The translations under genes were made by a program, and so were the position numbers. 64,000 nt of DNA from Candidatus Gastranaerophilales bacterium (GTDB lineage: Bacteria > Cyanobacteriota > Vampirovibrionia > Gastranaerophilales > Gastranaerophilaceae), in contig CALUXX010000001.1 of NCBI GenBank assembly GCA_944324845.1, forward strand, positions 1 to 64,000. The letters are read 5' to 3'. This document shows positions 18,173 through 31,040 of this stretch, in pieces (the first letter of the stretch is position 1; every line of letters begins with the position of its first letter). The notes below the pieces were generated by a model that worked only from the letters and a program-made list of their open reading frames with translations, had not been told where the DNA came from and did not search any database.

Positions 18173-18808
18173 TTAAATGTTTAAATCAATAAATTTTTCG
18201 TTTTCGCCTACATTAGTAATTTTTAATTTTGTTAAATTTTCAGGATCAAACTGAAATATATTTGCACTAGAGAAAAATGCACATCTTCCTTTTGTTTTGT
18301 AAGGGGTTATGCTTGTATCAACTTCTTTGGGAAAGAACTTTGATACAAGTGTTTTTACTTTATCTATAATATCATTCGGCACAGCTTCAAATTTGCCGTA
18401 ATCACTATAACCTCTTATATTAAAAAATATTTTAGGTTTGTAATTTTTATCTATATAAGAATCATAGGTATTAAGTTGTTTTTCTAATGCTTTTACTTGT
18501 CCATCAGTATTAGTGGGGACATAATGAGAAAGAATTGCAAGTGGGTCTCCTGTTTTTAGTTTTGTGATAATTCCAACAGAATTACATCCGTTTAAAGCAT
18601 CGGTATAAATTGTATTTATTCCGTTAGGGGTAATTCTTGCTGCAGCACAATGGTTCATATCAACATGCACAATAGATTTGTCACCACGGGTTCTCATTTG
18701 GTGTAAAATCATTTCAGGCATTGAGTTAATATTTTTAATGTTTTCTTTTGTATTTGCTGAAATTTTAGGGATAACTGTACGTGTTAAATTTATAATCTTA
18801 CCTACCAT
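18173..18808 (-). CDS. Unknown protein with possible CheD/CNF-like Cys-His deamidase fold
   Basis: 211 residues, no signal peptide, family not recognised with certainty. The line LNGCNSVGI (C75), 20 residues later SHY (H95), then a helix, a strand (KIFFNIRG), a second helix and a closing GRCAFFSSANIFQFD follow the order seen in the CheD/YfiH/CNF1 superfamily. There a GC...H pair catalyses glutamine deamidation or a related thiol reaction, and CheD ends with GRxxxFxxxxGxV. This is a pattern-level resemblance only. It lies 106 bases downstream of the ATP-grasp gene on the same strand. No Shine-Dalgarno is visible, so it may be a weakly translated or separately initiated gene. Confidence 0.4.
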   Translation of the reverse strand: MVGKIINLTRTVIPKISANTKENIKNINSMPEMILHQMRTRGDKSIVHVDMNHCAAARITPNGINTIYTDALNGCNSVGIITKLKTGDPLAILSHYVPTNTDGQVKALEKQLNTYDSYIDKNYKPKIFFNIRGYSDYGKFEAVPNDIIDKVKTLVSKFFPKEVDTSITPYKTKGRCAFFSSANIFQFDPENLTKLKITNVGENEKFIDLNI

Positions 18809-18914: not shown

Positions 18915-19787
18915 TTAGCCCAATTTTAGGTTTCTTATAAGTGTATCAGTGATTTCAAAGCCTGTTTGTTTTTCGAAATGGTAAAACATAGGTGCCGGAT
19001 TTGCTTCAATGAATACATATTCGCCATTATTACTTAACCTTATGTCAATTCCTGAGTATTTTAATCCCAAAAGATTTAATACTTTTAAGCAATCTTTTTT
19101 TACTTGTTCTGGTAATTCGTGTCGATTAATTTTAGCATTTGTATCAGCTCTGAAGTCTAAACTTTGTGCGAGTATTTCTCCTGGGTATATTTCTCCTGTC
19201 TCAAATGCATATACCCTTATGTCAATACCATCAATACATTCTTGTAGTTGACAAGGACAGTTTTTTAAAGTGTCCTTTCTTAAAAGGTCTTCTTCTTGCA
19301 GTTTTTTTGTATAAGCCCCTCCTCGTACAGGTTTGTAGATGATATTTTTATTATTAGATAAATAAAAATCTTCTAAGGCATCAGGATCATCAGTTACTAT
19401 TGTTTTAGGAATTCTTATTCCGTTATTGTACATAATTTTGCTCTGTAATCCTTTTTTTCGATGTAATTCAACAGCTTGTAGTGAATTCCAACTTTTGGAC
19501 TCTAATGAACATAATAGACTTTCAAGGGCAGATGTTTTTTCTCTATATACGATATCTGAGGTTTTGTAGGTAACGCCATAATACCATCTCCAATAGATTC
19601 CGGTAATTTCTTTTAGATAAATTTTTTCATTGTCTAATACAATATAATCATTTTCTCCTTCTGGTGACCAATTTATGATAGGGTATTCTCGAGAATCAAG
19701 ATATTTTACGGGTGAGTTTTCTTCTTTTAATTTCTCAAATACGTATTTTGCATGGAATTCTTCATCACTGCCTATTATAATAATCAT
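18915..19787 (-). CDS. ATP-grasp ligase, graspetide macrocyclase (MvdC/MvdD/PsnB type)
   Basis: A 290-residue ATP-dependent carboxylate ligase. The N-terminal domain has the macrocyclase-style IYWRWYYG (64-71) and a stretch RKKGLQSKIMYNNGIRIPKT (110-129) matching the 'nKl.ql..a...Gl.iP.Tl' line of MvdD relatives, then VTDDPDA. ATP and metal residues: K152 in IYKPV, hinge QECIDGID (182-189) with R191, D248 in SGIDIR and E261/N263 in FIEANPAP. The terminal FEKQTGFEITDTL equals the 'E..tGlpi...l' end of graspetide synthetases. Such enzymes join Asp/Glu side chains to Thr/Ser (esters) or Lys (amides) of a precursor. A strong AAGGAGG precedes the ATG. It is divergent from the multi-core precursor at 19921. 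Confidence 0.85.
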   Translation of the reverse strand: MIIIIGSDEEFHAKYVFEKLKEENSPVKYLDSREYPIINWSPEGENDYIVLDNEKIYLKEITGIYWRWYYGVTYKTSDIVYREKTSALESLLCSLESKSWNSLQAVELHRKKGLQSKIMYNNGIRIPKTIVTDDPDALEDFYLSNNKNIIYKPVRGGAYTKKLQEEDLLRKDTLKNCPCQLQECIDGIDIRVYAFETGEIYPGEILAQSLDFRADTNAKINRHELPEQVKKDCLKVLNLLGLKYSGIDIRLSNNGEYVFIEANPAPMFYHFEKQTGFEITDTLIRNLKLG

Positions 19788-19831
19788 ATTTCCCTCCTTA
19801 TCTATATTAAGTGTTTTTTGTATATATTTCC

Positions 19832-19844
19832 AATTGTAACAATT
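19832..19844. promoter_or_regulatory. 13-bp palindrome between ligase and precursor genes
   Basis: AATTGT-A-ACAATT is a perfect dyad in the 133-base divergent region, followed ten bases later by another TTGTA half. It is positioned to act as an operator for both graspetide genes. No clear -35/-10 pair could be assigned on either strand. Confidence 0.35.
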
Positions 19845-19920
19845 TTAATTGTATATCTAAAGTTTTTCTTAAAATTGTCGTAATTCGTTTTTGTATATAG
19901 AAAGTTTGAAAGGAGTAAAG

Positions 19921-21285
19921 ATGGTAAATAGAATTAATGGTAATTCTGACGGTAATTTTGATAAAAAATTATATGAAGCTGCAAGTAAAAAATTAGCCGC
20001 TTCAGGAAATGAAAAGCCGACATCTGCACAAATTAAAAAAGAAATCGAAAAATTGTCAAAATCTTCAAAAGCAGAAACGAATGATTCTGATATAAAAGTA
20101 CCAGGATTATACATCGAGAAAAATCCTGATGATAATACATTTGTAGATTATAAAGATGGTGCAACACTTCCAAAAACTCCTAAGAATATAACAACAGCAG
20201 CTACGAATGAAGAAGGCGGTGCAGACCTTCGTAATGATGCCGCAACTCAAAGAAAGATACTAGAGATGATTGATAAATACAGACAAGATACAGCTGCAAC
20301 AACCAAAGCCATAGGTGAAGAAGGCGGTGCAGAACTTCGCATGAATGAAGAAACTAAAAAGAAAATACAAGAAATCTTTGATGAATTTAAACAAGAAGGT
20401 GTCAGAGACCTTCGTAATGATGCCGCAACTCAAAGAAAGATACTAGAGATGATTGATAAATACAGACAAGATACAGAAGCAACGACAAAAGCCATAGGCG
20501 AAGAAGGCGGTGCAGAACTTCGCATGAATGAAGAAACCAAAAATAAGATACAAGAGTGGATTGATAAATTCAAACAAAATGAAGCTGCAACAACCAAAGC
20601 CATAGGTGAAGAAGGTGGTAGTGACATTCCTTTGGATGATGCAACTAAAAAGAAGATACAAGAGTGGATTGATAAATTTAAGGGTTCAAAGTTGACAACC
20701 ATGGCAGTTGGTGAAGAAGGTGGTGGAGAACTTCGTTTAGATAAAGAAAAGCTCCAAGAACTTTTTGATAAAATCAAACAAAATGATGGTACAACCACCA
20801 AAGCTATGGGCGAAGAAGGCGGATCCTCAACTATTACCACAGAGGCTTTAGGCGAAGAAGGTGGTTCTCCAATGGATATTACCTCCAGGGCAATCGGTGA
20901 AGAAGGCGGATCCTCAACTATTACCACAGAGGCTTTAGGCGAAGAGGGCGGTACTTCAACTACCTATGCACTTGGTGAAGAAGGTGGATCCTCAACTATT
21001 ACCACAGAGGCTTTAGGCGAAGAAGGCGGTACTTCAACTACCTATGCACTTGGTGAAGAAGGTGGCGGCGATATTCCTTTGGACGATGCTGCTAAAAAGA
21101 AAATACAGGATTTGATTGATAAATTAAAAGACACAGAGTATACAACCATGGCCGTTGGCGAAGAAGGTGGTGGTGAAACTCGCATTGCAGACGAAGACAA
21201 AAAGAAGATACAAGATCTGATTGATAAATTCAAAGACGCAGAATTGACAACTATGGAGCTTGGCGAGGAAGGCGGAGATTCATAA
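19921..21285 (+). CDS. Multi-core graspetide precursor (14 TTxxxxEE-type cores)
   Basis: 454 residues, hydrophilic. Residues 1-90 look like a leader (helical, KKLYEAASKKLAASG, then DIKVPGLYIEKNPDD). From residue 91 to 452 there are 14 copies of [I/A/L/S/Y/T]-TT-x4-EE-GG: 13 with TT and one with TS. Ten are TTxAxGEEGG variants such as TTKAIGEE, TTEALGEE, TTYALGEE and TTMAVGEE. TTxxxxEE is the core pattern of group 2 (plesiocin-type) graspetides, in which two Thr-Glu esters make a hairpin. Cores 1-6 and 13-14 are separated by a repeated amphipathic helix (KKKIQEWIDKFK type); cores 6-12 are packed with 3-6 residue spacers. Start: ATG 19921 with AAAGGAG five bases upstream; an upstream TTG at 19891 is rejected. 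Precursors of this class are normally far shorter. Confidence 0.8.
   Translation: MVNRINGNSDGNFDKKLYEAASKKLAASGNEKPTSAQIKKEIEKLSKSSKAETNDSDIKVPGLYIEKNPDDNTFVDYKDGATLPKTPKNITTAATNEEGGADLRNDAATQRKILEMIDKYRQDTAATTKAIGEEGGAELRMNEETKKKIQEIFDEFKQEGVRDLRNDAATQRKILEMIDKYRQDTEATTKAIGEEGGAELRMNEETKNKIQEWIDKFKQNEAATTKAIGEEGGSDIPLDDATKKKIQEWIDKFKGSKLTTMAVGEEGGGELRLDKEKLQELFDKIKQNDGTTTKAMGEEGGSSTITTEALGEEGGSPMDITSRAIGEEGGSSTITTEALGEEGGTSTTYALGEEGGSSTITTEALGEEGGTSTTYALGEEGGGDIPLDDAAKKKIQDLIDKLKDTEYTTMAVGEEGGGETRIADEDKKKIQDLIDKFKDAELTTMELGEEGGDS
20191..21276 (+). repeat. Array of 14 graspetide core repeats
   Basis: The first core starts at 20191 (TTAATNEEGG) and the last at 21247 (TTMELGEEGG). In order the variable four residues are AATN, KAIG, KAIG, KAIG, MAVG, KAMG, EALG, RAIG (TS variant), EALG, YALG, EALG, YALG, MAVG, MELG. 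The EEGG ending is invariant, while the residues between TT and EE vary. This is what is expected if TT and EE are the crosslinked positions. Confidence 0.85.
20225..20590 (+). repeat. 183-bp tandem duplication inside the precursor
   Basis: Units 20225-20407 and 20408-20590 are identical over about the first 70 bases and remain in register afterwards (61 codons each). At the junction the core is lost: the sequence reads FKQEGVRDLR where a TTxxxxEEGG core would be expected. This marks the recombination point. Confidence 0.8.
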
Positions 21286-21290
21286 CAAAT

Positions 21291-21320
21291 AAAAAAGAAG
21301 GTTTTATAACCTTCTTTTTT
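21291..21320 (+). terminator. Intrinsic terminator of the precursor gene
   Basis: A 13-bp stem (21291-21303 / 21308-21320, TTAT loop) with an A-run on the left and a T-run on the right, six bases after the stop. In the other direction it could also end the tRNA-Met transcript. Confidence 0.85.
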
Positions 21321-29813: not shown

Positions 29814-31040
29814 TTATGCAATCGTATTTTTCGGATCAATTTTTGCCATGTTACTTCCAACATTTCTTGGCCAGTATTGGTTAAGGTTATCTTCATCTGT
29901 TTCATCTGTTACAGGACAATATTTTGCGCCGATTGCTCCGATTGTTGTTCGACCTTCTTGGATGTAATGGTCTGATAAAAATTTTGCCATATGTTCAATA
30001 CATTCACCAACATCATCATATTTTTTGAATCTTCTTGAACCTGGAATTCTTACACCGCCAACATTTTTGTTTTTTATGGCTAAATTACTTGTTCCGTTTG
30101 CGGATTCATTCATTACTATTCCTGCAAGAAATGCCGCATTTATTCCATATTTTTCTTGAAGTTCTATGAATTTGTCGCCTTTTCCTTCAAGTACGCCTTT
30201 TAAATGTTTGTTAATATCTTCTGCACTTCCTTTAAATTCAGTAGTTACAGCAATTTGTGAATATTGCTCCATTGTTAGTTTTGGGATTTTGAATGGTGGT
30301 TCATCATCTTCTTTTTCAACATGTGGGTTTACATTTAAAAAGTCAGGTAAATCTGATTTTTTAACTTCTTGTGTTTCTGTCGTTTCTGTAGGTATATTAT
30401 TTGCTAATGGAATTTGTATATCTTCTTGTTTTAGTACTGTTTTGATTGTGTCATTTAGGTAGATATCAGGTGTTTTTAGCCATTTATCTTTTGCTGTTGG
30501 TAGAGGAATTGATTGTTCTTCTTGTTGGGAAACCTCTTGGTTGTCTTGATTTTGGTTTTGTGGTTTTGTTACTTCCTCTTTTACAGGTGTTTCTTCCGGT
30601 ATTTTTTCTTGAGTGTTTGGTTGTGTTGTTTCAACTTTTTGTGTATTTTGTGTTATGTATTCTTGGTTTTTAGGTATGAATTTTTCAGGGGCAAATTTTT
30701 CAAAATAATATTGAGTATCTTCTTCGCTAGGTTTGTTTATACTTGTTTGGGCTGATACTTCTTTTGTTGTTTTTTCTGGTTTTGCCTCTATTTTTGTTGG
30801 TTCTTTTCCAAATTCAAAACTTCTTGTTGCTGTTTTAGGTAATGTGTTGGAAGTTTCTTCTTTTTCAGTTTCTCCTAAATTCAGCTTTTGTCCAATAAAA
30901 ATTGAGTTTATATTTTTTATTTTGTTTAGTGTTGCAATTTCTTTAACTTTTTCGTTTATCTGTGTTGCATCGGTTAGCTTGAATGCGTTTTTAACTATTT
31001 TCCATAAGTTGTCGCCTGATTGCACTTCGTATGAGCCCAT
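29814..31040 (-). CDS. LysM plus glucosaminidase-type cell-wall hydrolase
   Basis: 408 residues. The N-terminal LysM (about 3-53; YEVQSGDNLWKIV, then NSIFIGQKLNL) should bind peptidoglycan. Residues 60-260 are a Pro/Gln/Glu/Thr-rich disordered linker. The C-terminus (about 285-395) looks like a glucosaminidase domain (PF01832): YGINAAFLAGIVMNESANGT with the catalytic Glu in NES, NKNVGGVRIPGSRRFKKY and the closing YCPVTDE...YWPRNV. No signal peptide or lipobox precedes the LysM, which is odd for a wall hydrolase. GAGGTG precedes the start. Monocistronic and convergent with clpB. Confidence 0.78.
   Translation of the reverse strand: MGSYEVQSGDNLWKIVKNAFKLTDATQINEKVKEIATLNKIKNINSIFIGQKLNLGETEKEETSNTLPKTATRSFEFGKEPTKIEAKPEKTTKEVSAQTSINKPSEEDTQYYFEKFAPEKFIPKNQEYITQNTQKVETTQPNTQEKIPEETPVKEEVTKPQNQNQDNQEVSQQEEQSIPLPTAKDKWLKTPDIYLNDTIKTVLKQEDIQIPLANNIPTETTETQEVKKSDLPDFLNVNPHVEKEDDEPPFKIPKLTMEQYSQIAVTTEFKGSAEDINKHLKGVLEGKGDKFIELQEKYGINAAFLAGIVMNESANGTSNLAIKNKNVGGVRIPGSRRFKKYDDVGECIEHMAKFLSDHYIQEGRTTIGAIGAKYCPVTDETDEDNLNQYWPRNVGSNMAKIDPKNTIA

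What the first reader, a model, noticed from the sequence alone, without database searches (positions are those of the whole stretch)
18915..21285. Graspetide system with a giant precursor carrying 14 TTxxxxEE-type cores
Seen: an ATP-grasp protein with MvdD/PsnB-like motifs is divergent from a 454-residue hydrophilic protein in which [T][T/S]-x4-EE-GG recurs 14 times. Known: group 2 (plesiocin-type) graspetides use a TTxxxxEE core, and their ATP-grasp enzyme forms two Thr-Glu esters. Inference: this is a graspetide locus in a probable melainabacterium. Its precursor is far longer and has many more cores than the plesiocin precursor (a few cores). I know of no description of such an array in this lineage. 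No protease or exporter gene is adjacent, so the array may stay as one crosslinked protein.
Basis: partly seen in the sequence, partly recalled or inferred. Interest (0 to 1): 0.95.

Follow-up and report, generated by a model that had tools for sequence, protein, structure and literature searches.

The report
Many-headed stapled protein in gut bacteria
A bacterium from a probably gut-dwelling branch of cyanobacterial relatives carries an enzyme gene beside the gene for a long protein with fourteen copies of a short motif; the enzyme is predicted to tie each copy into a small double loop, likely making one long protein that would block several kinds of protein-cutting enzymes at once.

Summary
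The divergent ligase (18915-19787, -) is a PsnB/MdnC-type graspetide synthetase: PsnB is the nearest solved relative by sequence and fold, ahead of RimK. In 18 of 21 related loci the ligase adjoins a core-bearing precursor, 17 divergently; core number runs from 1 (58 aa) to 14. Core residues 1 and 8 are kept or lost together (41/0/3/26 distinct cores), as expected for nested Thr1-Glu8 and Thr2-Glu7 esters. Loop residue 3 varies most (K, M, E, Y, A, R here). No C39 peptidase was found in the genome; 37 of 85 more distant array proteins have a Tat-like signal. I infer an intact, many-headed protease inhibitor. Chemistry, export and target are untested. Large arrays are not unique to this lineage, and long repeat precursors are reported for graspetide groups 34/35 (PMC13097080). 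A new variant of a known kind.

The parts
18915..19787 (-). graspetide synthetase (ATP-grasp ligase), 290 aa, PsnB/MdnC type
   Evidence: NCBIfam and PDB sequence hits; AlphaFold2 model pLDDT 93.1; Foldseek top match PsnB 7drm_A, TM 0.84, 26% identity; invariant R67, K152, R191, D211/R213, D248, E261, N263 over 64 homologues
19921..21285 (+). giant precursor, 454 aa, no Cys, 14 cores
   Evidence: sequence; 305 homologues at E<=1e-3 of which 120 listed
19911..19917 (+). ribosome-binding-site-like AAGGAGT before ATG 19921
   Evidence: read from sequence
19960..20067 (+). helical leader segment, inferred to be a decayed LysM-like module
   Evidence: residues about 14-49 are the best-modelled part (block pLDDT 74-88); aligned with precursors that still score as LysM; the window protein itself has no Pfam hit
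20122..20163 (+). leader box NPDDNTFVDYKDGA, likely ligase recognition site
   Evidence: T73, F74, V75 invariant over 31 precursors; F-[VI]-x-[FY] kept in 58-72 aa one-core precursors; resembles the published Phhx(1,2)h leader motif (PMC8939145)
20191..20724 (+). cores 1-5 (20191, 20299, 20482, 20590, 20695), 33-61 residues apart, separated by predicted helices
   Evidence: coordinates; helices
20794..21066 (+). cores 6-12, close-packed, 12-15 residues apart
   Evidence: 78-nt duplication at 20896-21065
21142..21276 (+). cores 13 and 14 with helical spacers
21291..21320 (.). terminator-like stem-loop after the precursor (listed by the scan on the - strand)
   Evidence: 4 found against a shuffle mean of 1.4, so weak

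Best explanation
A PsnB-type ATP-grasp ligase, encoded divergently beside a 454-residue protein with fourteen TTxxxxEE cores, is predicted to close each core into a double-ester hairpin, and the product would likely work as one intact, many-headed protease inhibitor of mixed specificity. Predicted steps: the ligase binds the leader box (TFVDY) of the N-terminal leader, then joins Thr1 to Glu8 and Thr2 to Glu7 of each core, up to 28 esters. Each hairpin presents loop residue 3 to a serine protease as microviridin presents its position 5. The 14 heads here carry K (4), M (3), E (3), Y (2), R and A, so one molecule could meet trypsin-like, chymotrypsin/elastase-like and Glu-specific proteases. 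The array probably stays whole and reaches the cell surface or the gut by a route not identified here. Shown: genes, motif, linkage, covariation, ligase family. Inferred: esters, inhibition, export, intactness.
For: Ligase family and fold. Physical linkage: 18 of 21 loci have a core-bearing precursor beside the ligase (12 with TTxxxxEE-type cores, 2 with the leader box but mostly decayed cores, 4 with TxAYPSDDA repeats), 17 divergent and 1 convergent, while flanking genes differ between loci. Connectivity: among 70 distinct xTxxxxExG nine-mers of the nearest precursors, pos1 T/S with pos8 E/D 41, T1 kept with E8 lost 0, T1 lost with E8 kept 3 (one of them is the leader box), both lost 26; Fisher p=3e-16 (a looser first count gave 45/1/12/34, p=1e-13). 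Specificity site: residue 3 has the highest entropy, 2.41 bits here, 2.39 in 304 cores of the nearest set, 3.20 in 731 others, while residue 5 (about 2 bits) is almost always aliphatic or Thr; 33 of 36 nearest proteins with at least 4 cores carry 3 or more side-chain classes at residue 3. Intactness: no C39 peptidase in the genome; no GG or SG within 15 residues before an early first core in 36 of 36 nearest proteins, whereas two cyanobacterial short precursors have TGG/SGG there (L085, L087); 37 of 85 more distant array proteins have an RR + hydrophobic (Tat-like) signal ahead of the array, one is joined to Calx-beta domains (L086) and one to RTX repeats (P0208). [quoted passage not shown] microviridin position 5 sets specificity, R trypsin, Y chymotrypsin, L elastase (PMC7823629).
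Against: No signal peptide, hydrophobic stretch (highest 15-residue mean 0.05) or exporter explains how the precursor would leave the cell. Residue 5 is nearly as variable as residue 3. That residue 3 is the protease-contact residue is by analogy with microviridin and from recall of plesiocin work. The 2-7 pair has too few losses to test. Covariation is weaker in the 85 more distant proteins (148/11/31/26), and distinct nine-mers are not independent events. Three of 21 loci have a ligase and no precursor found within 4 kb (L018, L019, L059). Two close relatives keep the ligase (78-79% identity) but have mostly decayed cores (L010, L011). The precursor model has mean pLDDT 43.
Confidence: 0.5

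Rival explanations
1. Multi-copy precursor cut into many small plesiocin-like peptides: the ligase staples the cores, and a protease encoded elsewhere then cuts after EEGG or in the helical spacers and releases 14 separate or a few clustered inhibitors.
For: Each core ends in EEGG (14 of 14), which looks like a double-glycine site; short 3- to 5-core precursors with TGG/SGG leaders sit beside related ligases in cyanobacteria (L085, L087); graspetide proteases are often not in the locus (PMC8939145 passage).
Against: No C39 peptidase found in the genome and no protease conserved beside the pair. GG also follows cores in 58-aa one-core precursors where nothing needs separating (L057, L060). Relatives with Tat-like signals or other domains on the same chain suggest whole-protein use.
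Confidence: 0.2
2. Cross-linked structural or cytoplasmic protein: the esters stiffen a repeat protein (surface fibre, envelope filler or aggregating matrix) and protease inhibition plays no part.
For: No export signal; LysM-like leader in some relatives; regularly spaced predicted helices; corallotide, a large repeat graspetide, aggregates and is compared with collagen (PMC13097080 passages).
Against: The loop residue expected to contact proteases is the most diverse one, across charge classes, while the frame is fixed, which a purely structural repeat does not need. One-core 58-aa precursors in the same ligase family could not form a fibre.
Confidence: 0.22
3. The precursor is not modified, or only partly: the ligase acts on another peptide and the array is a passive repeat.
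For: No chemistry was tested; NCBIfam scores are below curated cut-offs; two relatives have mostly decayed cores.
Against: Paired loss of T1 and E8, adjacency in 18 of 21 loci, a common leader box and no other TTx4EEGG gene in the genome.
Confidence: 0.05

Closest known systems
Plesiocin and its synthetase PsnB (group 2 graspetide)
   Same: TTxxxxEE cores in tandem (motif recalled; that plesiocin has four repeat units with two esters each is from PMC12291112 passages); ligase nearest to PsnB among solved structures.
   Different: 14 cores against 4, helical spacers, a different leader, divergent gene order, no NHLM-type transporter (which PMC13097080 says co-occurs highly with group 2), and only about 26% structural-alignment identity to PsnB.
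Cyanobacterial TTxxxxEE loci found here (L085, L086, L087)
   Same: Same TTLALGEEGG-type cores beside a ligase 36% identical to the window's (L085); L086 precursor is 600 aa with seven strict cores.
   Different: HPF leader, co-directional genes, TGG/SGG site in the short ones, Calx-beta domains in L086.
Graspetide groups 34, 35 and 41 of the 2026 survey (PMC13097080)
   Same: Long precursors with repeated motifs; group 35 has only ligase and precursor (section 7 read).
   Different: Their sequences and taxa are in supplements I could not read, so identity with this family is open.
AMdnA/AMdnC, chryseoviridin and corallotide multicore systems
   Same: One ligase works on several cores in one chain (PMC5934393 abstract and passages; PMC13097080).
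   Different: 3 to 5 cores and other linkage patterns.

Membership tests
Graspetides | ATP-grasp ligase of the MdnB/MdnC/PsnB peptide-maturase family | tested here: met
   Caveat: MvdC 101 of 425, MvdD 98 of 475, SAV_5884 96 of 350 bits, all below curated cut-offs, as are two cyanobacterial ligases beside TTxxxxEE precursors.
Graspetides | Adjacent precursor with repeated Thr/Ser donors before Glu/Asp acceptors | tested here: met
   14 cores; 18 of 21 loci.
Graspetides | Leader recognition motif (Phhx(1,2)h, found in about half of precursors) | tested here: inconclusive
   Window has TFVDY with Thr in place of Pro; L060 (PFVKF) and L017 (PFIKF) have Pro.
Graspetides | Side-chain ester or amide macrocycles in the product | not testable with these tools
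   Needs mass spectrometry; only indirect support from 1-8 covariation.
Plesiocin type (group 2) | TTxxxxEE core with nested bicyclic hairpin | tested here: met
   Motif met in 13 TT and 1 TS cores; nesting supported by 1-8 covariation, while the 2-7 pair is too invariant to test.
Plesiocin type (group 2) | Ligase in the group 2 cluster of the published similarity network | not tested
   The network was not available. Nearest solved enzyme is PsnB, on a long branch.
Plesiocin type (group 2) | NHLM-type transporter usually co-occurring (typical, not defining) | tested here: not met
   None beside the pair; no C39 peptidase found in the genome.
Serine protease inhibitors | Inhibition of a protease | not testable with these tools
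   Inferred from the family and loop variability.
RimK-type ligases | Best match to the RimK family in sequence and fold | tested here: not met
   63 bits, below cut-off and below the peptide-maturase models; first RimK is rank 32 in Foldseek.

The most novel reading that the evidence does not exclude
A gut-lineage bacterium makes a single stapled protein that is a natural multi-headed inhibitor: fourteen ester-locked hairpins whose loop residues are diversified across trypsin-, chymotrypsin/elastase- and Glu-type specificities, held on a leader derived from a LysM wall-binding module, so that it acts as a broad antiprotease shield against host or rival proteases. Tat-like versions in other phyla would make stapled arrays a general class of extracellular protein and not a source of small peptides.
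Probability: 0.3. Interest if true: 0.85.

Novelty: new variant of a known kind. Interest (0 to 1): 0.62.

Why it matters
The native targets and ecological roles of microviridins and plesiocin are described as elusive (PMC9826346 passage). A two-gene system with a ready set of heads of different predicted specificity lets the link from loop residue to target be tested head by head in one molecule. If the array stays whole, ribosomal peptide stapling becomes a way to build large cross-linked proteins without disulfides. The paired loss of residues 1 and 8 gives a natural test of ring connectivity. For biotechnology, a ligase that accepts 14 cores and long spacers would be a useful stapling tool.

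Tried and rejected
RimK-type or glutathione-synthetase ligase: rejected. Chance or low-complexity repeat: rejected. A second ligase or precursor paralogue in the genome: ligase search found one copy; leader search found only one weak extra hit, E 0.05, in an unrelated-looking long ORF; the core pattern occurs nowhere else. The 211-aa neighbour (18173-18808) as a partner: no Pfam hit, weak NCBIfam XopAK hit E 5e-4 far below cut-off, and no similar protein at any relative locus. Tree with two other ATP-grasp proteins of the same genome as outgroups: very long branches (6-7) pulled PsnB towards one of them (82/79), so it was dropped and the tree rebuilt without them; hence the tree has no RimK outgroup. 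Structure of the precursor: mostly disordered, mean pLDDT 43, not searched further. In the covariation count, Ser at position 2 and register-shifted reads were dropped for the second version; both versions are reported.

The 'nearest set' of 35 homologues (P0121-P0152, P0154, P0156, P0175) was chosen by me by rank and by eye; 31 of 35 match the leader-box regex. The Tat-like count is a regex plus hydropathy scan, not a trained predictor. Four near-set precursors were tested for LysM because they showed GDTLW-like starts; two passed the Pfam cut-off and two fell just short.

Papers: 9 of 10 searches used. 37 papers hold 'graspetide', 31 listed. 'graspetide' with 'Melainabacteria' 0; with 'twin-arginine' 0; 'TTxxxxEE' 0. 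The library holds open-licence PMC papers only; the primary plesiocin, PsnB and 24-group genome-mining papers were not read (recalled or seen as references). Seen: PMC13097080 passages and section 7; PMC8939145 outline and passages; PMC5934393, PMC12291112, PMC7823629, PMC10452190, PMC9826346, PMC13003496, PMC11048544 passages only.

Full report
What is there. The window encodes a 290-aa ATP-grasp ligase at 18915-19787(-) and, divergently, a 454-aa hydrophilic protein at 19921-21285(+). The protein has 14 [TS][TS]x4EEGG cores; residue shuffles give a mean of 0.0015 and a maximum of 1 in 10,000. The DNA pattern for TTx4EEGG is found 13 times in the genome, only here. Spacing falls into two kinds: 33-36 residues (once 61) with a predicted helix between cores, and a close-packed block of 12-15 residues. 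Thr1 uses four codons, Gly9-Gly10 several, while 78-nt and 183-nt units show recent duplication.

The ligase. Peptide-maturase models of NCBIfam score 96-101 bits, RimK 63, all under curated cut-offs. Among solved chains PsnB is first (106 bits; next 57), also with a 64-row profile (193 against 132 for MdnC). The AlphaFold2 model (pLDDT 93.1) matches PsnB chains first (TM 0.84, 26% identity); RimK starts at rank 32. Chain names 7DRM=PsnB, 5IG9=MdnC, 5IG8=MdnB are confirmed in PMC10452190 (passages). In a 23-row unrooted tree microviridin-type ligases separate from the window ligase, its relatives, three cyanobacterial ligases and PsnB (100/100); PsnB sits on a long branch, and an attempt with other ATP-grasp outgroups was unstable.

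The pair across relatives. 25 of 286 genomes of the order match at E<=1e-3, 19 of them at E<1e-50 with 20 loci. With L011 from genome contigs I examined 21 loci. Twelve have a TTxxxxEE-type precursor next to the ligase: window 14 strict cores, L009 13, L012 10, L015 8, L014 7, L017 5, L061 2, L057, L058 and L060 one each in 58-72 residues, L013 at least 2 (contig end) and L016 at least 3 (part masked). L010 and L011 keep the leader box but have Cys/His/Trp-rich arrays with few cores. L062-L065 have 160-174 aa precursors with TxAYPSDDA repeats. L018, L019 and L059 show none. Seventeen of these 18 pairs are divergent; L017 is convergent. Flanks fall into several unrelated neighbourhoods, so ligase and precursor are the common unit.

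Covariation. Some repeats read VTYALGENG or VTTAIGESG in place of TTxxxxEE. Among 70 distinct xTxxxxExG nine-mers of the nearest set (35 homologues plus the window), T1 and E8 are both kept in 41 and both lost in 26; T1 kept with E8 lost never occurs; the reverse occurs 3 times, once in the leader box itself and twice with Asp at position 8 (p=3e-16). The looser count gave 45/1/12/34. Other homologues show a weaker link (148/11/31/26, p=6e-10). Distinct nine-mers share ancestry, so the p-values are descriptive, but at least ten residue pairs replace T/E. This is what a Thr1-Glu8 ester predicts. Position pair 2-7 hardly varies and says nothing.

The loop. Residue 3 is the most diverse position: entropy 2.41 bits in the window, 2.39 in 304 cores of the nearest set and 3.20 in 731 others; residue 5 is close to 2 bits but mainly aliphatic; residues 4 and 6 are nearly fixed as A and G. 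Here residue 3 is K4, M3, E3, Y2, A1, R1. In microviridin the residue beside the ring Thr (position 5) sets the target: R trypsin, Y chymotrypsin, L elastase, M subtilisin (PMC7823629 passages). [quoted passage not shown] A two-target engineered plesiocin is known to me only as a title in that reference list. Hence the reading as a natural multi-headed inhibitor, which is an inference.

Leader and export. Some near homologues begin with a LysM domain (P0141 and P0154 over the Pfam cut-off, P0134 and P0148 just under), and the window leader aligns with them but scores with no Pfam family. The leader box F-[VI]-x-[FY] is shared by giant and one-core precursors. The window protein has no hydrophobic segment. 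Own-genome LysM proteins with wall-hydrolase domains (window 29814-31040; L024) also lack an obvious signal peptide, so a signal-less export route in this lineage is possible but unproven. Of 85 more distant array proteins, 60 have HPF in the first 12 residues and 37 an RR-plus-hydrophobic Tat-like stretch; 0 of 35 nearest ones have either. Tat carries folded proteins (established knowledge), which would suit arrays stapled in the cytoplasm.

Evolution. At one shared location (L009, L012, L014, L015) flanking proteins are 94-99% identical, ligases 83-91%, and precursors 42-61% except L014-L015. In that pair the array is 99% identical while the leader is 72% and the ligase 91%, which suggests array exchange.

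Verdict. The locus is a plesiocin-type graspetide system with a many-core precursor. The kind is known; the size, mixed heads, spacer architecture, LysM-related leader and lineage are, as far as my limited searches show, not described. All chemistry and function remain to be tested.

Noticed in passing
P0153, P0158, P0163, P0170, P0225 and others (37 of 85): TTxxxxEE arrays in planctomycete-named and unnamed proteins carry a Tat-like signal between an HPF leader and the array; P0163 and P0213 have a Cys that looks like a lipobox.
   Followed up: partly
L062-L065, beside ligases 38-40% identical: Precursors with repeated TxAYPSDDA motifs, which recall the microviridin TxKYPSD core, beside ligases on the window's side of the tree.
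   Followed up: partly
L010:4709-5863(-), L011:4703-5863(-): Precursors that keep the leader box but are rich in Cys, His and Trp (KPSWGKPDCD, HHWGHHHWG) with few intact cores; ligase still 78-79% identical.
   Followed up: no
L061:5955-6698(+): 247-aa precursor with one core at each end and five GTPGPGVHLDEGQ-like repeats between.
   Followed up: no
L014 and L015: Array 99% identical although leader is 72% and ligase 91%: likely array exchange between strains.
   Followed up: partly
window 29814-31040(-); L024: LysM plus wall-hydrolase proteins (Glucosaminidase; Amidase_3) without an obvious N-terminal signal, hinting at a signal-less export route.
   Followed up: partly
L086:5821-7623(-): Cyanobacterial 600-aa precursor joining two Calx-beta domains to seven strict cores, directly beside its ligase.
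   Followed up: partly
G231 second ligase hit (L056): A second, more distant ligase (35% identity, residues 50-283) in a genome that has a one-core system.
   Followed up: no
window 18173-18808(-): 211-aa ORF beside the ligase with a weak match to the XopAK effector family model (E 5e-4, 19.5 of 150 bits); not found at related loci.
   Followed up: partly
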